Shown here: positions 47,100 to 60,272 of the stretch, piece after piece
Layout: the number at the start of each line of letters is the position of its first letter
Numbering within the stretch: the stretch's first letter is position 1
Assembly (NCBI GenBank): GCA_900468535.1
Contig: UBTY01000025.1
Coordinates: 1 to 64,000 of the forward strand
DNA: 64,000 nt
Direction: 5' to 3'
Source of the DNA: Hyphomicrobiales bacterium
Lineage (GTDB): Bacteria > Pseudomonadota > Alphaproteobacteria > Rhizobiales > Rhizobiaceae
The notes under the pieces: generated by a model
Seen by the model: only the letters and a program-made list of their open reading frames with translations
What the model was told of the DNA's origin: nothing
The model's database searches: none
Program-made: the position numbers and the translations under genes

Positions 47100-47496
47100 C
47101 GCGCCGGCGCCCGCGAGGCGGGCCGTGGCATGGTTTCCCTTCTTCTACCATCACTGGGGCAGAGTTTGGACAAAAGAATCCATTGCGAGACGCTGTCTCC
47201 ACCGAAGTTCGCCGGAACCGCGAGTGATTGGTTGCATAAAATTGCCAATGCAATTTTTAGGATTTATTTGTTGAGGTGGTGGTGATAACTAAAATGTATA
47301 AATTGTCATTTCGGATGCATTTGTTGCGTCTATTTCAATAGAGTACTGATTAAAATCAGTATTTTTCTGCGTTTACTGCGATTTCATAAATAGAAAAGCG
47401 AGCTAATCCAGCGATTGGCGCTTTGTAATTCTGATTTGCCTACCATCAATGATCTCATGTTGTCGCGAAGCCATCGGCTCGGCGGGAGGTATTGCT
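47100..47496. promoter_or_regulatory. AT-rich leader upstream of the giant-protein cassette
   Basis: From about 47228 to 47410 the sequence is strikingly AT-rich (roughly one-third G+C by eye) against a GC-rich background. It holds three small inverted repeats: TTGCAT-N10-ATGCAA (47232-47253, followed by TTTTT), CTATT-TC-AATAG (about 47330-47341) and ACTGAT-TAAA-ATCAGT (47345-47360, followed by ATTTTT). AT-rich promoters in rhizobia are often silenced by MucR/Ros or H-NS-like proteins. Two repeats resemble terminators, others could be operators. It separates the J-domain gene from the cassette. Confidence 0.5.
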
Positions 47497-47820
47497 ATGC
47501 CCACATTGCGCCTGGTAAGGCCGCACAAGCATATTGTTCTGACGATCGCGGGCGGTTCGCTCGTTACAAAGGGCGATTGGAAGGTCTTGGAGGCCGATCC
47601 CACCTCGGCTTTGTTGGAGAGCAGCGGACAATGGGAGAACTGGATACTCGGCAGTCCCGGAAACTCCAACAACATGCGGCTCTACGACAAGAGCGACCAC
47701 AAGGTCATGCTCCTCAAGGGCTACACCGAGGGCAATAGTTCCGGTGATGGTGAAATCATGCTTCCGGGGTTCGGAGGCACGTTTGGTGACGATCCGTTTC
47801 AATGGTTCCTCGGTTCCTGA
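47497..47820 (+). CDS. Unknown small protein at head of giant cassette
   Basis: This is a 107-aa protein with a very strong GGGAGGT ribosome site before ATG 47497-47499. It appears soluble and beta-rich, with PTLRLVRPHKHIVLTIAGGS at the start, WKVLEAD, SGQWENWILGS and a glycine-rich C-terminus (GDGEIMLPGFGGTFGDD) that ends FQWFLGS. It has no Cys, signal peptide or membrane segment. I recognise no family. It lies 90 bases before the first giant gene, with an imperfect hairpin in between, and is probably the first cistron of the operon. Confidence 0.6.
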   Translation: MPTLRLVRPHKHIVLTIAGGSLVTKGDWKVLEADPTSALLESSGQWENWILGSPGNSNNMRLYDKSDHKVMLLKGYTEGNSSGDGEIMLPGFGGTFGDDPFQWFLGS

Positions 47821-47850
47821 CGCAGGCTGGCTCCTGCGAGGGGCGCGTCA
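47818..47850 (+). repeat. Stem-loop between the small gene and the first giant gene
   Basis: TGACGC-AGG pairs with CCT...GCGTCA around a CTGGCT loop, with a 9-base bulge. It includes the stop codon of the 107-aa gene. No T-run follows, so it may tune read-through or mRNA stability rather than terminate. Confidence 0.35.
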
Positions 47851-47910
47851 CACTGACTTCTGAATGGCCTCCCAGGCGAGGTGTTCCACTCCATCGATGA
47901 GGGTATCGAT

Positions 47911-50900
47911 ATGGAAGGCGTCATCGCGCGGCTGGCGGGCCGCCTATATGCCATCAACGCAGATGGCCAACGCAGCCGGATGCAATTCGGGCTGGATATC
48001 ACGGGCAAGCTGGTGTTCGATAATTTCTTCGGCGCCGACAGCACCTTCCAATACATTGAACTCTTTGATGGCGATGAAACGAAGTTGCGCTTCAGCCTTC
48101 GGACGCGCGGTCGTTTTCATTACTATGCCAAAGATCAGCAGATCGTCCTCGCTATGCTGAGGTCGTTCCAGATGGCCAGCTTACTACCGGACGGTCCCGG
48201 CCTTTCCTGCGTGCTGAGATGGACACTGTCCCAGACCGGCATGTTCAATGCGGATGGCTCGCTCAACGTTTTCACATACTACGCTTCCAACTACGCTGGG
48301 GACGCCTTTCCAGGCGATGACGCCGAAATCAGCGGCTATCGTTCACTCAAGCAGCTTTCCAATCCTTCGCCTTCCGACAGCTTCGAACGTGCCATATTCG
48401 CAACAAATGCGCCGGTTGCGATTTCGCCTGATGCCTATCCATTGCTGGCGCGAATGCTTGGCCAGCCAACTGGCATCGGGTTCAGGGATGTAAAGCGGAT
48501 TCCTCCGAAAGCGGATGGCAAATACAAACAACCGCGCGCCATTGGCCTCAGGCCGGCCGGCATACGCCGGAAAGCCCACGACGGCGACAACGACTTCTTG
48601 ACCTTCGGCGGTCGGGTGCAGGTCGAGCCGACATCCGCCAAACCTGGTTCGGCAAACATCGTTGTGGACAGCCGTAGCGCTTCCCGCGTTGCGATCGAGA
48701 TCACGAAGCCGGTCGATTTCCACCTGATACCCGACGTATTCAATCAGCCGGATCTCGACGATCCCAGGAAGATAGACAGCGCGCTTCATTCCTGCGTCGA
48801 GATTACGGCGCTGTCGCCACACCTTTTTGCCGACCTCTGGAACGAGCGCGTCGCACAACCCTACCTCTCCGCATTGAGAACTGTCGACGATGCTCACGAA
48901 ACGTCTTTCGTCCCCCTGCTGCAGAATGTCGGCAACTCCAAAGGGGAGAGCGGAGAGTTCGATGCTCTGTTCGACATGGTGCAGCCCGACGCTCGCAGCG
49001 ATGATGTCGGCGATATTGTCCTGGCTGTCCTTCGCCCGACGCAGGCGGCGGCTGTTTTCACCGCCGATGCGGTCTTTCCGGGTCTTTTCACCCATGACGG
49101 CCTGCCGGTCCGCCGCCGGGTAAAGGTGCGCGTCGAGCGGGAGGCGATAAGAGACACCTTCTGCTGGTTCGACGCGTTGCCTAGAGCGTCCAGCATACTG
49201 GAAATCAGGGTTGAGATCGTTGCTGACACTGATGCGGGCGAGGAGCCGTCTTCCGCCCTCCGCTTCGGGGCGCTGGATTTCGACGTGCCCGGACATGCGA
49301 AGGAGCAGGCCGGTCGCCTGGAAATGCGCCTTGCGGTAACGTTTGATCCCGCCGACTCGGCTTTCCCGCACTATGCGACTTCCAAGCGTGATCCGAAAAG
49401 GCAGGCCGGACGCCCCCGGCTGCCCTATCCGGGTGAAGCAATTCCGAGAATTGTCGTTCATATCGACCAGTTCGATCTGGCTGATGTCCGTCCGGGTGCG
49501 CAGGACGCGTCAACGGACAGCGGACGCGCATTCGATGCCGTGCTCGAGCCGCTCAGGCGCCGCGACGTGGACACCTCTGATCCGGAGTTCCCAAGGGTCA
49601 CGCGCGAAAAGCGGATAGCGGGCAACCTATCCCGCGATGTGCCGTTGGTGCTCGTCGACAGGCCCAAGGTGACGTCAAAAGAGGATTCGCTACGGACGCC
49701 CTTCTTCCTGACCGGAGAAGAGGTGACCGCCACCGGCAGCAATCGCCGCCTCGCGCTTGTGCTGCATCGTAAACCACTCAGAAACACTGCCGGGACCCCC
49801 TCGACGGGCGAAATGAAATCTGGAGATCGGACGATCGTCATCGACGCGGAGCCATTGACCGTTGCAATGGCCAACGTCCCCACATTCGGGCTCGATCTCA
49901 CGCAAAGCGAAGACAGCGACGGCGAGATCGCGAACTGGGAAACCTCGGAGTTCGGCGGCGGCAAATGGGAGATCGCCGGCGTCACGGATGGTTTCAACCT
50001 GTCCTTTCCGCCGCAGGCAACGGGAGAGGCGTTCGAGAAGGGTGCGCCGTGGCCCCCGATCTCGCCGACAGGCGCCGAGATTACCGTCGATTACCGACTG
50101 GGGACGCTTGCGCGCATGTCGCTGCAATCGTCCTATTTCAAGCAGCAGTATGCAGAGGCACCGTGGAACCTGCGCCGGATACTTGGTTCCGCCGGCGATC
50201 GGGCGCCAGGCGCTGGGCTGGCGACCGCCAGGTTCGAGTTCCTCTACGGTCTTGCGAGCCGGTTGACATCGCCAGGCCTGCGGCTAGCGGAGATCGGTGC
50301 GCGCATCGGGGGACTGCGTACGCCGCTTCCGGCGCGCCCGAAGGGGATTGCCCGTTCTCTGACGGGCACGAGCCGGCAGCCGCTCGTGGAAGCGGAACTC
50401 TACGATCGCCAGCGGGACCTCGCGGCTGGCTTCTCGAAAGTCTATGAAACGCGCCTCGCACAGTTCGGGATCTACCGCGAGGGCACCGAGGGCCCATTGT
50501 CAGTGGATGACAAGGTCGCTTTCGAATTGCGGGCGAATGCCGAAGTCGATCCCGATCCCTGGGATCCGCAAAGCAAATCCACCAATCTGAAGGGCGGAGC
50601 CACGCGCGGCTTCGAGTCGAAGAACATTTTTCAGGAGGTGATGAAAAAACCGGCGAGCACACGCGGGCAGATCATCGAGCCAAGCTTCACCGCGCTTGGC
50701 GGCTCGGGCTTTATGCGCGCCTTCTTTGCGAATGGGAAGACGCGGATCGTCTCCAACACGGTCGTTGGACGAACCGATACCTACACGTTGGAGCGCATCG
50801 GTCGCATCGGCGTGTTCTGGAACATCGCAAAGCACGTTATCGTCTATGAGCGGACGGTCTTGCCGCCGGACCAGTTTGCCGAGGAGCAGGAGGGGCAGCA

Positions 50901-53900
50901 TCTCGGTCGTCCCGTGGTGCGTAAAGTTCAGGAGTATGTGGAGCTTCTGGAGCCGGATCGCGCCTATCCCGAAAAGAGCGGCGGACAGAAGGCACGGGGT
51001 TTTGTCGAAGCCTGCCTGTTTCCCACCCGCCGTATCCCGGTGAAAAGCAGCTGGGGCCGCGATGTCGAGGCCGGCTGGATCGTGCCCCTTTGGAGGAGCG
51101 ATGCAGATCGGGATCTCTTTCCCAAGCCGGATATCAGGCTTCGGCTGGCGAGCGCAAATACGGGCGCGTCAGCGGCCGTTCTTTCTCGCCTCAGCGATCC
51201 CAGCCAGCTGGTCTTCTTTACCTCGGTGCGGGAGGAGGACGGCGATCTGCCCGATCAGTGGCTGCCGGTCGCGGGTGTGGATTTTGTCAACGCGCCGGCA
51301 CCTTCACCCACAGGGCGACCGGTCATCGACCGGGCAGATCCCGACGGGCGGCAGCCGGATGACCGCATGCGCGATCCTATGTTCGATCGCTGCACGTTCG
51401 ACGTGGATAGCGGCAGCGCTCCGGCGAACCTGATCGCAGCGAGAGCCGCCGGCGAACCGATCGGTGCCGTGGTCGAAACCGTCTCGATGATGCGATCGAA
51501 GCCGACCGGAGCCGGAGGTGGGCCTGGCCAAGCGATCGCATTGAGAGCGCATCTGCAGGCGATGGCTGATGATGCACGCGTCCTGGAAGCGCGGCTGAAT
51601 GAAGCCATATCGACTGCCAGGGGCATCGTCGCGGGACTATGGAACGCGTCCCGTGCTGGCGATCCGGTTGAGGATGCCATCGCCCAGCTTGAGGCACTGA
51701 AGGGCGAGGTCCGCCAGCGGGCGGCTTCCGCACGACAGTCCACCGGCGCGGCGGCTTCCGAGGCGAAGACAGCCTTGGATGCCGCTCGATCGAAATGGAC
51801 CGACGAGGCAGCGAGCTTTCAAGGCACGGCGACCAAAGCCATCGAGGAAACGTTGAACCGCCGCCTGGATGCCTTGATCAAGGCGCTCGGTGATCTGCAG
51901 GCGGATCCACATCTCTTCGAGGGCGCAACGGCGAGCAGTGCCAAAAATGTCGCCCGACAGATCGAGCAGGCGCTAGCCTTGCCACGGTCGCAGCTGCTGA
52001 CTGGGATCAACCGAGTTTCGGCCGCCTTCGAACAGCTCGATCGCGGCGTTGCGGGGTTGCTTGGTGGGATATCGGATGCAGCGCGCAGCGTTGCGGATTC
52101 TGCTGCAGGCGTTGAAAGAACCATCGTGTCGCTCCCGGATGCCGGGCAGGTTCTGTCTGCATATGATCAGTTTCATCGCCTGACGATGGATACCATCGAT
52201 AGCATTCTAGACAACGCGCGGCGTGGCCTTCCGCCGGTCGTGATGAACGAGAAGATCTTCCCGGTCGGATCGAGCTACGTTTCGTTGAGCGTGTTGCTGG
52301 GCGCGTTGCGAACAGCGCTCGTCCAGGTGCATGCCACTGCTTTTTCCGAGGCGCAGAAGGCTGAGGCGAACTTGAGCGGTGTGCGTGCGGCGGTGGGGGA
52401 GGCGCTCCATCGCGCTGTCGATGCCATCGAGGCCGCCGGCAGCGGTATGACGGCGCTGAATGCTGCCGTGGACGGTTATCGGCAGCAAGCCGCGGCGAGT
52501 CTTGGGGCATTCACGACCGGTCTCGGTGACGTTTGCCGAGACTGTCTGGCGGTGCTTTATGAAATATGCCGGAAGCCGGCGGATGACCTTCGCAAGCGTG
52601 TCGAGGGCGAGCTTCAGAAGCTGACGGACAAAGCCGTGTCATCGAAGCTTGCGATCGCCGCCGCAACGAAGAGCGCAATGAATGACCTCGGTGGTTTGCT
52701 CGATGGCGTCGGTCGGTCGATGGCCGACGAAGAGAAGGCGATCGGCGATGTGATCGATGGGGCCGCTGTCGCTGCGACAACGACGATCACCGGGCTGGAG
52801 GGCAGCCTCATTCAGGCGATCGATGCCGGTATTTCGGTCCTTCGGCGGGACGGCGGGGCGATCAAGGAGGCAGCGGAGAGACTTGAAGACGGGGCGAAGG
52901 CTATCGCCAGCGGCTTACAGCAGCAGATTCCGCCCTCTGTCGCAGAAAACATCCGCGCTTTAGAGGAGGGATACAAACGGCTCTCGAATGCGCCTTCCTT
53001 CCAGAATCCCAGCGACACGCTGGCGCTTGTGCGGGCTGCGGGGGCGTCCCCGATCCTTCCAAATCTGAGTTTCAATCGGGATCGCATAGCCTATTTCTTC
53101 GATGATGCGCGTGACGCGATCCGCACGTCGCCTGTCGTCGCGCTGATGAACCGGCTCGACGACGATCTGAAGGCGCTGGGCATTCGCTTGCCGACCGACG
53201 AAATTCTCGACCGTTTCGCGCCGAAGGGGTTGGAGAACTTCGACTTCAGCCAGATCTTTCCCGATCTCGCGGGTCTCAAGCTGGACGGCTTGTTCAAGAA
53301 CTTTCATTTGCCGGCGTTTGCCAGCGACAAGATCAAGATCAGCCATGGCTTCGATAAGGCCAGTCTGAGCGGCTGGGCGAAAGCCGAGGCGAGCACATCG
53401 CTTGGAGATCGATCCGAGATATTCGAATTCGGTCCCCTCAATTTGTCGATGGTCTCCGGCACGTTCGCGGCACTTGCCGATTTCGCAATCGACCCGCAGG
53501 GACTTTCCAAACGGACAACGAAAGCAGAGATCACGGGTGACTGGGAGCTGGCTTTCAGCGGCCATCCACTCGTCACGCTTGAAGAGACGCGCGTCTTCTT
53601 CGAGGACGGCAAGGGTCTCGATGTCGACATCGATCCGCGCCGCGTGCGGCTCGATAATTCGATTAAGTTTCTCTCCGATCTCATCAAGTCGTTCAGCGAC
53701 CCGAACTCGGGATTTTTCCTTGAGATGCTGGAGGCGAACGGCGTTCCGGCCGGTATCTCGGCGCGTATCGAACTGCCGCTGCCGCCGCTGTCGTTTGGTG
53801 CCTTTTCGGCAACCGGCATGCGCTTCGCCACATCGTTTGAATTGGTGGCGTTGAAAAAAGGCGAGGGCAGGCCGGGAGAATTCGCGCTGGCAACCAGCAT

Positions 53901-54393
53901 GGCGCTTGGGCGCAAAAGCGAACCCTTCGTGTTGCGGGTATGGCTCTTCCTTGGTGGCGGCTGGTTCGAGGCGCGCGCACGGTATTTTCCGACCAGCGGA
54001 AGGCTCTCGAGCGCCGTGTCGATCGGCCTTACCGCAGGTGTCGGCATGGATTTCGCCTTCGGGCCGTGCAGCGGCTTCGTCTATGCAATGCTCGGCGCCT
54101 ACGCCGAGTTCGAAACGGACGGTTCCGTCGGCAAGAGCTTTTCGATTGCCGTTATCTTCCTGGTTCGCGGCGGTGTCGTGATCCTCGGGCGCTTCAATAT
54201 CGGCCTCTCGATGCTTTTGGAACTTGTGTACCGCGACGATGGCAGCGCGGTGGCTCGCGGAACCCTGGAGGTTAGTTTCAAGATCTGCTGGTGCTGCGAG
54301 ATCAAGGTTCGCCAAGCGATCACCTACTACCTCTCCGGCGCTCAGAAAAACGCCGCCACCGCCTCCGGCGACCATCTCGACAACTTCGCGTGA
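47911..54393 (+). CDS. Giant protein of unknown function, 2160 aa
   Basis: I recognise no family. Roughly residues 1-1200 look like mixed, beta-rich domains without catalytic motifs (for example RMQFGLDITGKLVFDNFFGA near residue 25). Residues about 1210-1690 are Ala/Glu/Lys/Arg-rich and strongly helical, with heptad-like runs (MADDARVLEARLNEAI, IKEAAERLEDGAKAIASGL) as in coiled coils or tape-measure-like proteins. The last 350 residues are beta-rich and hydrophobic (FVLRVWLFLGGGWFEARARY near 2005, VGKSFSIAVIFLVRGGVVIL). Near the end is a Cys-rich signature ICWCCEIKVRQ. No signal peptide is seen. I chose ATG 47911 (GAGGG upstream); a GTG at 47881 is the alternative. It ends 7 bases before the second giant gene. 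Confidence 0.7.
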   Translation: MEGVIARLAGRLYAINADGQRSRMQFGLDITGKLVFDNFFGADSTFQYIELFDGDETKLRFSLRTRGRFHYYAKDQQIVLAMLRSFQMASLLPDGPGLSCVLRWTLSQTGMFNADGSLNVFTYYASNYAGDAFPGDDAEISGYRSLKQLSNPSPSDSFERAIFATNAPVAISPDAYPLLARMLGQPTGIGFRDVKRIPPKADGKYKQPRAIGLRPAGIRRKAHDGDNDFLTFGGRVQVEPTSAKPGSANIVVDSRSASRVAIEITKPVDFHLIPDVFNQPDLDDPRKIDSALHSCVEITALSPHLFADLWNERVAQPYLSALRTVDDAHETSFVPLLQNVGNSKGESGEFDALFDMVQPDARSDDVGDIVLAVLRPTQAAAVFTADAVFPGLFTHDGLPVRRRVKVRVEREAIRDTFCWFDALPRASSILEIRVEIVADTDAGEEPSSALRFGALDFDVPGHAKEQAGRLEMRLAVTFDPADSAFPHYATSKRDPKRQAGRPRLPYPGEAIPRIVVHIDQFDLADVRPGAQDASTDSGRAFDAVLEPLRRRDVDTSDPEFPRVTREKRIAGNLSRDVPLVLVDRPKVTSKEDSLRTPFFLTGEEVTATGSNRRLALVLHRKPLRNTAGTPSTGEMKSGDRTIVIDAEPLTVAMANVPTFGLDLTQSEDSDGEIANWETSEFGGGKWEIAGVTDGFNLSFPPQATGEAFEKGAPWPPISPTGAEITVDYRLGTLARMSLQSSYFKQQYAEAPWNLRRILGSAGDRAPGAGLATARFEFLYGLASRLTSPGLRLAEIGARIGGLRTPLPARPKGIARSLTGTSRQPLVEAELYDRQRDLAAGFSKVYETRLAQFGIYREGTEGPLSVDDKVAFELRANAEVDPDPWDPQSKSTNLKGGATRGFESKNIFQEVMKKPASTRGQIIEPSFTALGGSGFMRAFFANGKTRIVSNTVVGRTDTYTLERIGRIGVFWNIAKHVIVYERTVLPPDQFAEEQEGQHLGRPVVRKVQEYVELLEPDRAYPEKSGGQKARGFVEACLFPTRRIPVKSSWGRDVEAGWIVPLWRSDADRDLFPKPDIRLRLASANTGASAAVLSRLSDPSQLVFFTSVREEDGDLPDQWLPVAGVDFVNAPAPSPTGRPVIDRADPDGRQPDDRMRDPMFDRCTFDVDSGSAPANLIAARAAGEPIGAVVETVSMMRSKPTGAGGGPGQAIALRAHLQAMADDARVLEARLNEAISTARGIVAGLWNASRAGDPVEDAIAQLEALKGEVRQRAASARQSTGAAASEAKTALDAARSKWTDEAASFQGTATKAIEETLNRRLDALIKALGDLQADPHLFEGATASSAKNVARQIEQALALPRSQLLTGINRVSAAFEQLDRGVAGLLGGISDAARSVADSAAGVERTIVSLPDAGQVLSAYDQFHRLTMDTIDSILDNARRGLPPVVMNEKIFPVGSSYVSLSVLLGALRTALVQVHATAFSEAQKAEANLSGVRAAVGEALHRAVDAIEAAGSGMTALNAAVDGYRQQAAASLGAFTTGLGDVCRDCLAVLYEICRKPADDLRKRVEGELQKLTDKAVSSKLAIAAATKSAMNDLGGLLDGVGRSMADEEKAIGDVIDGAAVAATTTITGLEGSLIQAIDAGISVLRRDGGAIKEAAERLEDGAKAIASGLQQQIPPSVAENIRALEEGYKRLSNAPSFQNPSDTLALVRAAGASPILPNLSFNRDRIAYFFDDARDAIRTSPVVALMNRLDDDLKALGIRLPTDEILDRFAPKGLENFDFSQIFPDLAGLKLDGLFKNFHLPAFASDKIKISHGFDKASLSGWAKAEASTSLGDRSEIFEFGPLNLSMVSGTFAALADFAIDPQGLSKRTTKAEITGDWELAFSGHPLVTLEETRVFFEDGKGLDVDIDPRRVRLDNSIKFLSDLIKSFSDPNSGFFLEMLEANGVPAGISARIELPLPPLSFGAFSATGMRFATSFELVALKKGEGRPGEFALATSMALGRKSEPFVLRVWLFLGGGWFEARARYFPTSGRLSSAVSIGLTAGVGMDFAFGPCSGFVYAMLGAYAEFETDGSVGKSFSIAVIFLVRGGVVILGRFNIGLSMLLELVYRDDGSAVARGTLEVSFKICWCCEIKVRQAITYYLSGAQKNAATASGDHLDNFA

Positions 54394-54400
54394 GGGTTCC

Positions 54401-57400
54401 ATGAAAATCGTTCTTCTATGTGATCTCGTCGCAGCGCCGGGCGGCGGCCAGAATATCTTCGGGATCCGCCTCTCTGGCGCCGGCCTTCGCCTGTCTCCCG
54501 GGGACGATCCGGCAAAAAGCGATCTTTTCAAACGCGCAGCTGCTACGCCGCTTCCCTTATCGCCCGACCAGGGGCTGGACGACTATCTCGATATCCTCGG
54601 CGAGGATGCCGGCCCGCTCTTTCCCTGGATCGGCGGTGAACTTGGTTTCTCGTCATTCTGCGCGACTGCCCCTTCGGCTGGCCTTCCGAGCGGAAATATC
54701 ATCGCATCCGACGAGCAGGAATTGTTGCTCCCCGCCGGCAGCGAGACAGGAGAGCCGGATTTCGAGCTCGCCGATCAAAGCTGGCGCTGGCTTCTCTACA
54801 CGGCCCTGCGCGATCTCGGCGGACCGGATCGCACGAATTGCTTTTCAGATCTGCGCCCCTTCGTGCTCGCGGGGTTGAACGATAGCAACCATCGCAAGCG
54901 GCTCGATGAGATCGACGGCGACAAAATGTGCTTCCAATACGAGGCCTTTCTGGCTGGGCTCGCCTCGATGGCTGCGCCGATCCCGCACGGGCGCCTCAAC
55001 CTGGTCCGGTTCACCCGCCTCGACAGCCTGCCTAACGTCCAGTCGGGGGAACGGACCTTGCTGGTTGCCGCGCCTCGTCTGAAGCCGCGCAAAAGCAGCA
55101 CGGTGTTCGAGCCGGATATCAGCGATCCCTCGAAGATCGTTTGGGAGACCACGCCGGCTGGTGTCGTTGCGACGATACCCTATGCGACGACTTTCAACGG
55201 CCTGCCGATCGAGGCGATCTGCCGTGCGGTGGATCCACGGGCATCAGGGAGCAGTGACACCAGCTTTCTCGATCGCGATACGTTCTGGGTGCGCAGGACC
55301 CATACCGGCGACGCGTCGGATCCGAGAAAAGGTGTGGCCTTTGATGACGCCATGGCGAGGCTGCCCGCGAAGCTATCAGAGGCATTCAGCCTGGCGGAGT
55401 TGCTCGTCGGCGCGATCGAGAACGACGCGGCCACGCAGGATACCCCGATCGCCAGCGCCATTGCTGGCGGCGACAAGCGAAAAGGTGCCGGGCTTCTGTC
55501 GGAGGCCGTCCTGATAGCGCTTCGCGATATCGTAGGGCCGGGTTGCATCGCATTGGATGCACCGCATGTCGGCGATGCGAAGCTGGTGACTGGGCCAAAT
55601 GGATCACCCGTGCATGCGGCGATCATCGAGCAGGTCAACGAGGCCGTGCCGTACGGTTTGCGCCTGCAAGATACGGATGCAATTGCCACAGCCGTGACCA
55701 ACGCGGATCGCGTCTTCCGCAACGCTTTTCGTCTGAAGACGCCCGATCAGGAGGCCCAGCTTGGCCGATGGTTCGACATCCTTGCGTCGGTATTGGGGCC
55801 GGCTTTGGGCTTGCCAAATGACGGAGTCGAATTTGCCAGTGCGCTGGCCGATGCCATGGCTGACAACGTCGATCAACCGGAGGCGTTCGAGCCGGCGTTG
55901 CTGCGCAAGGTCGTCGATGGGGCAATCACCGCCACTAACGCAGCGGCGATCCAGATTGCCGTCTGGCGCGACGCTGTTTCCGGGCAGGAGAGTTTGCGAC
56001 CGTGGTCCTCTGCTGCCGAGACTGCCTTTGGCTCTCTTTTTGAACAGGGTTTCAACGTTGTCAGGATACTGAAGGCTTCCAACATCGACCTGGCATGGAC
56101 CGATCCAGAGGGGATCTGGCGAAACGCGGGAGCGCCGGATCAGACAGACCTGGATATTCTTTGCGGAGCTGACAGTGATGGTGACCGCGGAAGTATTCGT
56201 GACTCTGTCATCTCCAGCCTTTTCGGTACGCTCTGCGAGAGCGACGCCAGCGGGATGACCCCGCTCGAAGCCAGATACGAGAGCTGCCATGGCCGGATCG
56301 GCAAGCTTCCAGCCGGCGCGCGGGAGGCAATCGCAACCGGGGTCGACACAATACTCAGAGCACAGAGGGGCGATTGGTTCCCGCAGCCGACAGTCGATAG
56401 CGATGGAGACACGCTGCTATCGGGCAATCTGGCGGCGGATGCACATCCCGTGATGCTCCAGGTCGATCGTCTTGTCGTGGCAGCACAAAGCACGACAGAT
56501 CTGAACGACGACATGGCGGGCTACGGGATGATGATGCGCCGCTCGGCCCCCTCCGAGGACTGGCGTTGCCTGACGGCGGGATTTGCGGAGATCAATCCTG
56601 ACGCCGGCTATGGTGTGGGACCTAAGCCGGTCGAGTTTACCAATGCTCCGCCGACAGTGCTTTCAGCATTGCCGATTGGTTATGTTGGACGTGCTCCGCA
56701 AGCAATCCTGCCTTATGACAACAGGCCGGTGATCGGCGACTCGCAGGGAGCCATGAAGCCGGACGACCAGCCTTCCGGTGACGTTCCGCTGGTACGCATA
56801 ATCCGCCAGGTGCAGCCGCGTGTCCAGGAAAGGCCGCCGGCTGAAACGCTGCTGCCGTTTCTCGCTTACGGCGCGACCTACGAGATCGCACCTTTCGGTA
56901 TCTCCAATCAGGGCGGTCTACCGATCGAGATCCGAGACAATGATTTTCCTGCCATGTTCGATCCCTCGAAGCTCGCTGAGGAACATTTCTCGCCGCCGCC
57001 GGAAGCAATCCGCCGTTTCACCTATCTGCGGCGGACCGGGATCGGATCGCTTCGCGTCGATCCTGCAGCAACGGGTCGAGAAGCATTTCATCCCTTACTG
57101 CCTGGAAAGGATGTGAAGCCGATTGCGGAAGAGATTTCAGTCCCGACGGTCGCCGTCGAGCCATGGAACACATCGGCTTCGACCGGGAGCCGGCCGCTGA
57201 AGATGAAGACCGCCCTCCTGCTTTCAAACGGCGATGGCGATCCATTCAGTCAGACTGCGGGGAAACTGGTGCTCACGATCGAGGCGCCAGTCACGCCTAT
57301 CGAGGATTTCGACCGCTGGATTGCGCTCGATGAGGCTTTGCTCAATCAGAATAGCGCCGAGAAGCTCAAGTTGCGGGATTTCCGAAAGGCCGTCCGAACG

Positions 57401-60184
57401 CGGCATGCCGCGTTGACAGCGGAGCTCCACGAGTTGGAACAACAACGGCGTCGTGCCGACTCCGGTGCCCTCAAGGCTAGGTCTGAAGAAATCAAGAAGG
57501 AACTTGTCATCCAGGATCCCGCAGTGGATGCGCTCGCGATCTCAGTGCGGCGCGTGCGACGGGATGGGGCGCTTGTGGCGGATTCGAGCGCACCCTTTGC
57601 GCCGGTATTCGTACCGTGGGGCTGGAACTGGGATGCCGATACGAGTGCGCAGAATCCCTTTGCCAGCCGACCGTCGATCAACCTCACTTGCGTCGTCCAG
57701 CGGGAGGCTAAAACTGCGTTCGACAGCGGCAGCAGAACAGTTACGGTCGCATCGGGTGACGTCGTTGTCGTGCAGCTCTTCTCTGCAGTCAGGACGGAAC
57801 GGTTTTCCGGCAAGGTCGATCCCGCCGGTGAACGCCGCTTCGACAAGGTTGTGCGGGAAGCATCGATTGGCGATGTGGATGTTGTCGACCCAGCCGACGG
57901 ACGGCAATACCGACTGTTCAGCATTCATGAGTTTGCCGTCGAGGCGGCTGCCAGCCAGCTGCCGGAGCCAGCAGAGATCGCACAACGGATTTCCGGGACG
58001 ATCGTGAGCGGTGGCGGCTCGCCTGATGAGCGGGAGGGCGATTTCCGACTGGACTTCATCCGGTCGACGTCTGCAAGAATGGATGCAATCGGTGCGATTG
58101 CTGTCGGTGCACAGGCCTGGCGCTGGACAGGGCGGCCCGTACCGCCGTTCCCTTTCAAGAAGGAAGGAACCTTCAATGATTTTCCGTCGGTGCCGCCAGC
58201 GGATCCATACGACGATGACATAAGCAAGCGGGCAGCTCCGCCATCGCCCAGCGAATATCCCTTTCTTTGGGATGTCGCCGGATTTGCCGAACGGCTGGGC
58301 GAGACGTTGGACGATACGCCAACGGCCGTGCCCATTACCGAGATGATCGGATCGTCGCCAACCAAGACACTGCCGATCCGGATCGCGCTTAACTCGACGG
58401 GTCGGCGCGAGAGCACCCGATATCTGCGCTTTGCGGCTACGGCGTATTCGCGCTACGCAGCCGCCTATCGGGCGGTTGGAGCTCCGGTGCTGCCGGTCAA
58501 GGCGCGTTGGGAAAGCGCCAGCGGCTGGTCGACGCCGTGGTACCGAATGTTTCGTCCGGCCCGCAGCACGAGAGATCTGCCACCTCCGACTGTCAGGGCG
58601 GTTCTTCCCTTGACGCGTGCTCTGGCGGAAGGGGATGAGGCATCTCCGGTTGCCGGGGTGCTGGCGGTGGTCGATGGGGCTTGGTTCGAGCATTCCGGGC
58701 TGGGCGATTGGATGCTCGGCGGTGTCGACATCGCACAGCGGACAACGTTCCGCGAGAAAAGTGCCTCGATCAGCGTGAGTGCGGTCGAGATGGGGCCTGA
58801 TCCTTTGGTTCGAGCCTATGGTCTGAGCTCAACATCGCCAGCGGTAAAGAAGACACCGAGGAGCCATGACGAGTTGCGAAACGTCGCGCCGCTGACCGTT
58901 GCGGGGCCGCTCGGCCACAGCTTCGACACCGGAACCGCAACGGGATTGTTTCTCAACAGTTCGTTCGTCATCAGCCCACCTGAGTTCACGCATGAAGATC
59001 CGGATGCCTGGTGGATGGCCAAGCTCTCGTTCCGCCGGCTGGTGCTTGCCGAGGCAACTGACGGCTATTGGCAGGACGTGTCATTACTTCCGGCAAAGTC
59101 CACTTCGTCGCAGATTTCAATCACCCAGCCCGCTACGGGGCCGGAGAAAGAGACGGCAACGGCAACGTTCACCTTTGCCGCAAGCCTTGCCCGCGGTCAG
59201 AAGGATGGGACGAAACTAGTCAGCAAGGCATTTTCGGTTGCAGCCAAATGGTCGGGCGGCGCGTGCAGTCTCACGATCGACGGCGCTGCCAACAAGACGT
59301 TCGCGCTTCCAACGCTGGCGTTCGATCTCCGCGTTGTCGCCGTCCGCCGCGTTTCAGAGATCGAACGCGACGGCGGAGCCGTATCGTACGCCTGGTTCGA
59401 CATCTTCCTATTGGTCAAGCCCTCGGGCGGGCATTGGAGGCTTGCCTGGCAAACCGAGTGGTTTGATGCGCTGCAGTCAGACGAGCTTCCGGATGCCGAT
59501 CCTGCGACGACAGAACTGACCGTCAATCTCACGCGGACGGCGGAGGGAGCCCAAACCGGCGAATTACGGGTGAGCCGATCGCTTCAGATATCCGAACCTA
59601 CCGAAGGGCGTTGGGCGCAGTTCATGCCAAACATGGCAGCGCTAGTGCGGTCGAGCCGCGTATCGCTTGCAGGCCTCGCGATGCAGGTGGATCCTGACAA
59701 CACCAAGAATCTGCTGTTGAGCGCAGGCGGCAGGCAATGGGGCTGGCTCGGCACGAATGGACTGCTTTCGGAGCGTGTCAGGGGGCGGGAGAACCAGGGG
59801 CTTTTCAATTTGCTGCTGGTGACGAAAAGCATAACCAGCGTGTCCGGAGAACCGGACGAGATATTTGTCGGGCTGTTTCACTCGCCGGAAGGCTACGACA
59901 GCAACAAGAAAGCCGTCGGTTTGCAGCCGTTCGCGCTTCATGCCGGTGGAGAACTTACCGGCCAGGCACTCATCGGCAGAATTCTCACCGCTCGATCCGG
60001 GCGTGCGAACCTGCAGCAGGCCGATATCCAGAGATGGCTCGAAGATCCATGGGGGCAGTTCTTCCCGCCCGAGAATGGTGAACCTGTGGATCCCGCAAAA
60101 GTCTTCGGAGGCCAGGAACAGGCGGACGTTCCGTTGCAAATTATCGAGATCTACGCACCGATAGCGATTATCGGGACTGCCTGA
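54401..60184 (+). CDS. Second giant protein of unknown function, 1927 aa
   Basis: I recognise no family. The start ATG 54401-54403 has GAGGG just before it and lies 7 bases after the first giant gene, so the two are surely cotranscribed. The N-terminus is MKIVLLCDLVAAPGGGQNIF, with no signal peptide or membrane segment. The protein appears built from mixed alpha/beta and beta-rich domains; one short coiled-coil (residues about 987-1035: TAELHELEQQRRRADSGALK) divides it. There are repeated Trp/Tyr-rich beta segments in the C-terminal third (PDAWWMAKLSFRRLVLAEAT, GGHWRLAWQTEWFDAL). It ends VPLQIIEIYAPIAIIGTA. Length and gene order suggest it forms a complex with the first giant, but this is inference. 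Confidence 0.7.
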   Translation: MKIVLLCDLVAAPGGGQNIFGIRLSGAGLRLSPGDDPAKSDLFKRAAATPLPLSPDQGLDDYLDILGEDAGPLFPWIGGELGFSSFCATAPSAGLPSGNIIASDEQELLLPAGSETGEPDFELADQSWRWLLYTALRDLGGPDRTNCFSDLRPFVLAGLNDSNHRKRLDEIDGDKMCFQYEAFLAGLASMAAPIPHGRLNLVRFTRLDSLPNVQSGERTLLVAAPRLKPRKSSTVFEPDISDPSKIVWETTPAGVVATIPYATTFNGLPIEAICRAVDPRASGSSDTSFLDRDTFWVRRTHTGDASDPRKGVAFDDAMARLPAKLSEAFSLAELLVGAIENDAATQDTPIASAIAGGDKRKGAGLLSEAVLIALRDIVGPGCIALDAPHVGDAKLVTGPNGSPVHAAIIEQVNEAVPYGLRLQDTDAIATAVTNADRVFRNAFRLKTPDQEAQLGRWFDILASVLGPALGLPNDGVEFASALADAMADNVDQPEAFEPALLRKVVDGAITATNAAAIQIAVWRDAVSGQESLRPWSSAAETAFGSLFEQGFNVVRILKASNIDLAWTDPEGIWRNAGAPDQTDLDILCGADSDGDRGSIRDSVISSLFGTLCESDASGMTPLEARYESCHGRIGKLPAGAREAIATGVDTILRAQRGDWFPQPTVDSDGDTLLSGNLAADAHPVMLQVDRLVVAAQSTTDLNDDMAGYGMMMRRSAPSEDWRCLTAGFAEINPDAGYGVGPKPVEFTNAPPTVLSALPIGYVGRAPQAILPYDNRPVIGDSQGAMKPDDQPSGDVPLVRIIRQVQPRVQERPPAETLLPFLAYGATYEIAPFGISNQGGLPIEIRDNDFPAMFDPSKLAEEHFSPPPEAIRRFTYLRRTGIGSLRVDPAATGREAFHPLLPGKDVKPIAEEISVPTVAVEPWNTSASTGSRPLKMKTALLLSNGDGDPFSQTAGKLVLTIEAPVTPIEDFDRWIALDEALLNQNSAEKLKLRDFRKAVRTRHAALTAELHELEQQRRRADSGALKARSEEIKKELVIQDPAVDALAISVRRVRRDGALVADSSAPFAPVFVPWGWNWDADTSAQNPFASRPSINLTCVVQREAKTAFDSGSRTVTVASGDVVVVQLFSAVRTERFSGKVDPAGERRFDKVVREASIGDVDVVDPADGRQYRLFSIHEFAVEAAASQLPEPAEIAQRISGTIVSGGGSPDEREGDFRLDFIRSTSARMDAIGAIAVGAQAWRWTGRPVPPFPFKKEGTFNDFPSVPPADPYDDDISKRAAPPSPSEYPFLWDVAGFAERLGETLDDTPTAVPITEMIGSSPTKTLPIRIALNSTGRRESTRYLRFAATAYSRYAAAYRAVGAPVLPVKARWESASGWSTPWYRMFRPARSTRDLPPPTVRAVLPLTRALAEGDEASPVAGVLAVVDGAWFEHSGLGDWMLGGVDIAQRTTFREKSASISVSAVEMGPDPLVRAYGLSSTSPAVKKTPRSHDELRNVAPLTVAGPLGHSFDTGTATGLFLNSSFVISPPEFTHEDPDAWWMAKLSFRRLVLAEATDGYWQDVSLLPAKSTSSQISITQPATGPEKETATATFTFAASLARGQKDGTKLVSKAFSVAAKWSGGACSLTIDGAANKTFALPTLAFDLRVVAVRRVSEIERDGGAVSYAWFDIFLLVKPSGGHWRLAWQTEWFDALQSDELPDADPATTELTVNLTRTAEGAQTGELRVSRSLQISEPTEGRWAQFMPNMAALVRSSRVSLAGLAMQVDPDNTKNLLLSAGGRQWGWLGTNGLLSERVRGRENQGLFNLLLVTKSITSVSGEPDEIFVGLFHSPEGYDSNKKAVGLQPFALHAGGELTGQALIGRILTARSGRANLQQADIQRWLEDPWGQFFPPENGEPVDPAKVFGGQEQADVPLQIIEIYAPIAIIGTA

Positions 60185-60272
60185 TGAAGCGTTGGCGCGC
60201 AGGTTTCACTGCGATCTGGAAAAGAGTCTATGCCGCTTTGACTGCTTAATCGATATAATGGCGCTGCTCGCG

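What the first reader, a model, noticed from the sequence alone, without database searches (positions are those of the whole stretch)
47497..60184. Undescribed three-gene cassette with two giant proteins
Three plus-strand genes (107, 2160 and 1927 aa) sit in tight order (7 bases between the giants) between a J-domain gene and panCB. None shows a domain I can name, no signal peptide or membrane helix is evident, and no transposase, toxin-immunity or phage tail gene is next to them. Frames of this length kept open in GC-rich DNA are under selection. The size and co-expression suggest a large two-component complex, possibly a structural or delivery assembly. This function is inference; the sequence only shows the architecture.
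Basis: partly seen in the sequence, partly recalled or inferred. Interest (0 to 1): 0.85.

Follow-up and report, generated by a model that had tools for sequence, protein, structure and literature searches.

The report
Mobile pair of giant partner proteins
Two very large, undescribed bacterial proteins are encoded side by side wherever they were found, appear to move between bacteria together, and are probably the two halves of one membrane- or lipid-touching machine whose job is still unknown.

Summary
In detail: two giant frames, A (47881-54393) and B (54401-60184), lie 7 bases apart and are real genes (dN/dS 0.13-0.18). The 107-aa gene is not part of the unit. A relatives were found in 47 genome loci from six phyla. 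B lies directly downstream in 44 of 50 loci; the other 6 contigs end within 600 bases of A. No third gene is widely shared. A and B trees agree (Mantel r 0.93). No family library or PDB sequence fits outside generic helical hits. A has a confident central beta domain with no PDB match found, 357-702 residues of amphipathic helix, and a C-terminal sheet of amphipathic strands resembling outer-membrane barrels. Sister families keep the A-B order; 6 of 11 sister A N-termini look Tat-like, including all 5 of the 2277-3311-aa group. Best reading: an obligate two-subunit, membrane- or lipid-acting complex, spread horizontally and Tat-exported in some sister lineages. Its role is unproven; a crude defence-island test was inconclusive.

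The parts
47183..60235 (+). Approximate extent of the inserted unit (AT-rich leader, small gene, A, B)
   Evidence: Homology to nine empty sites of relatives ends near 47177-47183 and resumes near 60230-60246; 11 of 30 held panC loci lack it
47183..47496 (+). AT-rich leader, likely promoter region
   Evidence: Not in the nine empty sites compared; G+C of 47100-47496 is 0.458 against 0.605 for the window. Promoter role is inference
47497..47820 (+). Small 107-aa gene, not part of the conserved unit
   Evidence: Homologues only in L004 and L010 among the loci held
47881..54393 (+). Giant protein A (2170 aa from GTG; 2160 aa from ATG 47911)
47881..49590 (+). A: variable N-terminal region (residues 1-570)
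   Evidence: Low conservation in the 37-row alignment
49603..51585 (+). A: conserved central beta domain (residues 575-1235), confident model, no PDB match found
   Evidence: (pLDDT 83.4, pTM 0.81)
51664..52950 (+). A: long amphipathic helical region (residues 1262-1690)
   Evidence: Period 3.6; generic hits to tape-measure proteins, apolipoproteins, ZorA and myosins
53002..54375 (+). A: conserved C-terminal amphipathic beta domain (residues 1708-2165)
   Evidence: homologous in sister families
54401..60184 (+). Giant protein B (1927 aa), constant partner of A
56378..59080 (+). B: most conserved core (residues 660-1560)

Best explanation
A and B are the two obligate subunits of one large soluble complex, encoded by a self-contained bicistronic module that spreads by horizontal transfer. 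A is the membrane- or lipid-contacting subunit: a conserved beta core carries several hundred residues of amphipathic helix and ends in a sheet or barrel of long strands with one mostly hydrophobic face. B is its partner. In one sister group A carries a Tat-like signal, so the folded complex is probably exported (B hitchhiking) and works outside the cytoplasmic membrane. In the window's family no signal is seen, so it works inside the cell or leaves by another route such as lysis. The patchy distribution suggests a conditional benefit such as competition or protection against an enemy. Shown: pairing, co-evolution, insertion at an otherwise empty site, selection, amphipathic architecture in sequence and model, Tat-like N-termini in sisters (by eye). 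Inferred: physical complex, membrane or lipid contact, hitchhiking, biological role.
For: B directly downstream of A in 44 of 50 loci, 6 of 50 truncated, 0 of 50 with room and no B. In 397 genomes of the order 8 carry A's C-terminal domain and 5 carry B of the window type, the same 5 that have strong A hits; the other 3 carry the sister-type B. A and B tree distances correlate at r=0.934, maximum of 2000 permutations 0.271, 36 loci. The largest other neighbour cluster spans 5 of 57 loci. Empty site in 11 of 30 held loci. dN/dS lowest in the C-terminal domain, 0.094. Of 17 modelled strands tested (4 short ones of the 21 left out), 16 differ by at least 1.7 hydropathy units between faces. VIA-align Z 15.1, rmsd 3.4, 214 aligned, to the outer-membrane channel CymA. 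Helix period 3.6 rather than heptad 3.5. Tat-like N-termini in L061, L063, L064, L065, L066 and L110.
Against: No experiment and no predicted A-B contact. The C-terminal model has mean pLDDT 69 and pTM 0.43, so barrel closure is uncertain; Foldseek's best PDB hits have TM only about 0.2. Amphipathic strands and helices also occur in proteins that never touch lipid. The window-type A has no export signal, and 5 of 11 sister A proteins (L008, L060, L062, L067, L068) show none as called. Pfam's TAT_signal model reached E 0.01 in only 1 of 16 sister proteins. B was not modelled. Neighbour genes gave no consistent functional clue.
Confidence: 0.45

Rival explanations
1. A two-component weapon or toxin-like particle: A inserts into or perforates a target membrane, B shields or aims it; released by lysis in the window type and Tat-exported in some sisters.
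For: Patchy accessory distribution, two-gene unit, amphipathic barrel-like C-terminus. Some neighbours hit PG_binding_1 (3 of 77 upstream, 3 of 69 downstream), YkuD (2), subtilase (2) and caspase (1) (no control).
Against: No convincing toxin domain: the only toxin-linked names shown are weak hits of one member each on A, MLKL_N E 0.0043 and LXG E 0.069 (25 of 29 families shown); none. No immunity-like gene recurs. Best Tc-toxin match of the central domain is Foldseek E 0.012 with TM 0.08.
Confidence: 0.2
2. An anti-phage defence system that senses infection and disrupts membranes with A.
For: Sporadic, horizontally moved two-gene module. Some loci sit beside SIR2, AAA ATPase/endonuclease, methylase or Dpd genes. 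Upstream neighbours gave 25 PADLOC families at E 1e-5, about 17 distinct names.
Against: 77 proteins of 14 control regions gave 37 PADLOC families, so no excess is shown. The control is crude: its proteins were the longest ORFs, 15 of its 25 shown families are DpdF models, 12 families are not shown, and its genomes are from one order. No PADLOC model fits A or B (best E 0.0068, helical stretch).
Confidence: 0.18
3. A lipid-transfer, lipid-storage or hydrophobic-cargo carrier, similar in principle to apolipoprotein B or bridge-like lipid transfer proteins.
For: Amphipathic strands plus amphipathic helices; apolipoproteins among the top profile hits of the helical region.
Against: Helical hits are generic (myosins and ZorA score too). 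No AsmA, TamB or VPS13 model among the Pfam families shown (at E 1, 25 of 29 shown). Patchy distribution does not suit housekeeping lipid transport.
Confidence: 0.2
4. A phage-tail or injection-type structural assembly with A as tape measure.
For: Tape-measure proteins are the top profile hits of the helical region.
Against: No phage record matches A; no PHROG below E 0.03; no neighbour family recurs in more than 5 of 57 loci; the match is confined to the helical stretch.
Confidence: 0.05
5. A is a conventional outer-membrane or surface beta-barrel protein.
For: C-terminal model resembles porins.
Against: No Sec-like signal in the window type; the same domain occurs in Streptomyces, which lacks an outer membrane (general knowledge).
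Confidence: 0.05

Closest known systems
Outer-membrane beta-barrels (CymA, OmpG)
   Same: Meander of long amphipathic strands; VIA-align Z 15.1 and 12.8 over 214 and 206 residues
   Different: No signal peptide, homologues in Streptomyces, only the end of a giant protein, 8% sequence identity
Apolipoprotein A1/A4/E (PF01442)
   Same: Long run of amphipathic helices; one homologue is annotated with this name
   Different: Far below Pfam's cut-off in the two proteins with scores shown (15.5 and 30.2 against 90 bits); restricted to the helical stretch
Phage tape-measure proteins
   Same: Helical stretch, top PDB profile hits
   Different: No phage record match and no convincing PHROG
Tc toxin complexes (TcA with TcB-TcC)
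   Same: Giant multi-subunit proteins (recalled)
   Different: No sequence match and no significant fold match of the one domain tested
Tat-exported hitchhiker complexes (PaoABC; start of the abstract of PMC4273604 seen)
   Same: Signal on one subunit only in the Tat sister group
   Different: PaoABC is an aldehyde oxidoreductase; here both subunits are giant and of unknown function

Membership tests
Outer-membrane porin-type barrel | Meander of amphipathic strands | tested here: met
   barrel closure not established
Outer-membrane porin-type barrel | N-terminal Sec signal peptide | tested here: not met
   Hydropathy scan; window-type A
Outer-membrane porin-type barrel | Restricted to bacteria with an outer membrane | tested here: not met
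   Same domain in Streptomyces
Apolipoprotein A1/A4/E PF01442 | Score above curated cut-off | tested here: not met
   15.5 bits and 30.2 bits (first member) against 90
Phage tail / tape measure | PHROG match or recurring tail-gene neighbours | tested here: not met
Tc toxin complex | Recognisable toxin-complex sequence domains | tested here: not met
   None for the window proteins nor among families shown for relatives
Tc toxin complex | Shared fold of the core | tested here: inconclusive
   Foldseek E 0.012, TM 0.08; B not modelled
Known anti-phage defence system | Match to a PADLOC model | tested here: not met
   Best E 0.0068, helical stretch
Known anti-phage defence system | Enrichment in defence islands | tested here: inconclusive
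   25 families near A/B against 37 in the control, with a crude control
AsmA / bridge-like lipid transfer proteins | Sequence match to the family models in Pfam | tested here: not met
   None for the window proteins at E 1; none among 25 of 29 families shown
AsmA / bridge-like lipid transfer proteins | Hydrophobic groove fold | tested here: inconclusive
   Amphipathic sheet, but coordinates were not inspected
DUF6603 (PF20248) | Match to the Pfam model | tested here: not met
   No match at E 1 in 3 of 3 genomes or records that carry A; none

The most novel reading that the evidence does not exclude
A-B is the founding member of an unrecognised class of giant two-subunit membrane-acting machines, present in at least six phyla, that moves between bacteria as a bare two-gene unit. 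It is built on a new fold, and in one sister group it is exported ready-folded by Tat as a cargo of about half a megadalton.
Probability: 0.3. Interest if true: 0.85.

Novelty: categorically new. Interest (0 to 1): 0.62.

Why it matters
Gene pairs of roughly 7-16 kb are costly, yet the window's pair is kept under purifying selection, and relatives occur in Pseudomonadota, Bacteroidota, Acidobacteriota and others, with a distant form in Actinomycetota. A widespread, constantly paired set of giant proteins that fits no family library used here marks a blind spot of domain-based annotation. The sister group with Tat-like signals offers a testable handle on where the system works. Export of proteins of 2,300-3,300 residues by Tat would stretch current ideas about that pathway's size limit (last point from general knowledge).

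Tried and rejected
Guess DUF4132 (own genome) and DUF6603: no match. Phage origin: no phage record matched A; viral contigs gave only 3 loci, one of which (L059) has the same gene layout as the bacterial locus L037. A first viral scan with the single protein found none.

Upstream neighbours (77 proteins) hit 25 PADLOC families at E 1e-5, about 17 distinct names. The control (77 of the six longest ORFs from each of 14 regions at round-number positions) hit 37 families, of which 25 are shown; 15 of those are DpdF models, leaving 9 distinct names shown and 12 families unseen. The tool gives no per-protein list. I raised the defence rival from 0.15 to 0.18 for this reason. Downstream neighbours were not scanned with PADLOC.

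Homology between A and B: none. Central domain: best VIA-align Z 3.5, best Foldseek E 0.012 in PDB and 0.028 among viral models; a family not listed is not excluded. Window B against sister B: weak (E 0.005 and 0.012 over 106 and 104 columns, hhalign probabilities 7% and 4%), so it rests mainly on gene order and on the same motif aligning twice. The two sister B groups match each other strongly (E 3e-48). Central domain against the Streptomyces group: E 9e-6; against the 2277-3311-aa group: only E 0.036. PDB profile search with the Streptomyces-group B: one hit, E 0.011, to a chromatin protein, not followed.

Literature: seven searches showed no description of this pair; one search returned no paper, and for the rest I read only listings and starts of abstracts.

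Rows dropped: trees use the 36 loci with both proteins among the aligned intact ones; split or partial copies (L006, L036, L044, L051, L054 and others) were left out. Seven loci (near-duplicates, close same-site copies, and the distant L008) were left out of the neighbour sets. Neighbour scans covered 77 of 128 upstream and 69 of 106 downstream ORFs, chosen by hand from mechanically picked longest ORFs, mostly leaving out short ORFs and the window's and L011's own flanks. Searches show 25 of 77 and 25 of 55 families. Sister hits H39 and H43 were not fetched.
Full report
Observation. The three plus-strand frames exist at the stated coordinates. Giant A is open from 47881 to 54393 (2170 aa from a GTG; 2160 aa from the ATG at 47911, which has a GAGGG about 7 bases upstream). 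Giant B is 54401-60184 (1927 aa), 7 bases downstream. The frames are under purifying selection: dN/dS against Rhizobium BG6 is 0.134 for A and 0.150 for B, and against L011 it is 0.167 and 0.177. By domain of A against L011 it is N-terminal 0.181, central 0.129, helical 0.264 and C-terminal 0.094. The 107-aa gene has homologues only in L004 and L010 among the loci then held; L011 carries A and B at the same site without it. The unit is therefore two genes, not three.

No known family. Pfam, PHROGs, NCBIfam and PADLOC gave no match at a curated cut-off, or none better than E 0.007, to the three proteins, and phmmer found no PDB chain for A or B at E 1. Scanning 21 diverse A relatives against Pfam gave 29 families (25 shown), mostly helical and generic: Apolipoprotein and Baculo_PEP_C in 9 of 21 each, the rest in 1-3. 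For the first member, whose scores are shown, Erp_C passed its cut-off (31.5 against 24.3 bits) on the helical stretch. Of 24 B relatives, single members hit PG_binding_1, Inhibitor_I9 and DUF993 at E 1.8e-4 to 2.6e-3. Profile searches of the PDB found nothing at E 1 with the central domain, one hit at E 0.99 with the C-terminal domain and one at E 0.53 with B. With full A they gave 837 hits at E 10; the 60 shown all match the helical region or its edges.

Distribution. In the window's genus, 36 of 36 other genomes sampled lack A; G074, met later, has B beside panC. Across 397 genomes of the order, 8 carry the C-terminal domain of A and 5 carry the window-type B, the same 5 that have strong A hits. 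The other 3 hold the sister-type B. A scan of the genome collection matched 80 stretches, of which 48 encode a relative of A, in 47 distinct loci. By their record titles these come from Pseudomonadota, Bacteroidota, Acidobacteriota, Gemmatimonadota, Planctomycetota and Hydrogenedentota. Plasmid records add Rhizobium, Sinorhizobium and Streptomyces; phage records gave none for A.

Pairing. In 50 loci (47 genome, 3 viral-contig; near-duplicates included) B lies directly downstream on the same strand in 44. In the other 6 the contig ends within 600 bases of A. In none is there room without B. Of 43 loci (drawn from 57) with one long A and one long B, 32 have a gap between -8 and +34 bases, 9 have larger overlaps that reflect the longest-ORF start, and 2 are split copies. 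Distances on the A and B trees correlate at r=0.934 (36 loci; maximum of 2000 permutations 0.271), and 15 of 33 branches are shared (shuffled mean 0.2, maximum 3). The A tree interleaves hosts: a Pseudomonas fluorescens copy beside a Burkholderiaceae metagenome bin, and Rhizobium, Bosea, Variovorax and Pseudomonas in one group. This fits transfer of the pair as a unit within Pseudomonadota; transfer between phyla was not shown.

No third partner. Among 57 loci, clusters other than A and B span at most 5 loci; several are the shared flanks of same-site copies. Peptidoglycan-binding domains occur in 3 of 77 upstream and 3 of 69 downstream neighbours, with 2 YkuD, 2 subtilases and 1 caspase upstream. 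This has no control. PADLOC families were 25 in upstream neighbours and 37 in control regions, but the control is crude and the comparison inconclusive.

Empty site. Of 60 genus genomes searched for the putative panC, all 60 have it, and 30 loci were held. In nine of the 11 measured, 325-429 bases separate the two genes. Homology to these empty sites stops near window 47177-47183 and resumes near 60230-60246. The insert is thus about 13 kb; besides the small gene, A and B no further gene is apparent in it.

Anatomy of A. Conservation falls in two blocks, residues about 600-1235 and 1708-2165. The central block folds with confidence (pLDDT 83.4, pTM 0.81), but no PDB chain examined resembles it (best Z 3.5; best Foldseek E 0.012), nor any viral model at E 0.001. 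It holds many residues invariant in 37 sequences, among them H985, Y989, E990, R991, R1014, K1015 and E1018. The linker is 357-702 residues long, with hydropathy period 3.6 rather than 3.5, as in straight amphipathic helices. The C-terminal block is modelled as a meander of long strands. Its block means of pLDDT are 71-91 between model residues 111 and 444 with dips at 221-240 and 281-290, but the mean is 69 and pTM 0.43 overall. 16 of 17 strands tested (4 short ones left out) differ by at least 1.7 hydropathy units between faces. VIA-align places model residues 232-458 on outer-membrane channels (CymA Z 15.1, rmsd 3.4, 214 aligned; OmpG Z 12.8, 206 aligned), while Foldseek's TM values are about 0.2.

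Sister families. Streptomyces plasmid SNP1 shares only the C-terminal domain at HMM level (E 9e-27). Profile-profile comparison confirms the C-terminal homology to the Streptomyces/Diaphorobacter group (E 3e-24) and to a 2277-3311-aa group in Sinorhizobium, Agrobacterium and Ruegeria (E 1e-20). The central domain also matches the first group (E 9e-6). In all ten sister plasmid loci fetched (L008, L060-L068) and in G311, G367 and G288 a long B-type frame or match lies next to A, some frames split. By eye, Tat-like N-termini (RR motif, hydrophobic stretch, small residues) are seen in 6 of 11 sister A proteins read: L063, L064, L065, L066 and L110 of the long group and L061 of Streptomyces, but not L008, L060, L062, L067 or L068. 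Pfam's TAT_signal reached E 0.0036 in one of 16 sister proteins. A gene annotated TatA/TatE family follows B in L065. The window-type A and B show no such signal.

Interpretation. The pairing, co-evolution and mobility make an obligate two-subunit system very likely. Membrane or lipid contact is inferred from two amphipathic regions. The Tat-like signals of sisters suggest that the complex works beyond the cytoplasmic membrane there and is exported folded, which fits a partner without its own signal. Whether it serves attack, protection or lipid handling is open; I give the composite reading 0.45. Nothing in seven literature searches described the pair (one returned no paper, for the others listings and starts of abstracts only).

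Noticed in passing
L065 18317-18484: A gene annotated TatA/TatE family follows B directly on a Sinorhizobium meliloti plasmid whose A has a Tat-like signal.
   Followed up: partly
L063 17658-18038, L064 18734-19069, L066 18704-19690: Small proteins with Sec-like N-termini lie just after B in the Tat sister group; by eye they do not look alike.
   Followed up: no
L006, L044, L051, L054: A and/or B are split into several frames: decayed copies or sequencing errors.
   Followed up: no
L008 15623-20515: The Streptomyces B carries an inserted peptidoglycan-binding stretch (NCBIfam PG_bind_siph E 7.9e-7, below cut-off).
   Followed up: partly
L005 28526-29101: A 191-aa gene after B has an HG...GC motif reminding me of L,D-transpeptidase-like effectors (recalled, not tested; no Pfam family at E 1e-5).
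   Followed up: no
L064 19397-24609: The Agrobacterium vitis copy lies beside genes annotated dpdE and dpdF, part of a DNA-modification defence system (function recalled).
   Followed up: no
L059 and L037: A viral-contig locus (IMG/VR 2510917021) has the same layout as the Novosphingobium AP12 locus, so its viral label may be a mis-binned host stretch.
   Followed up: no
control set A18 (L120-L133): One control protein matched DpdF at E 5e-262, so a Dpd-type gene was hit by chance.
   Followed up: no
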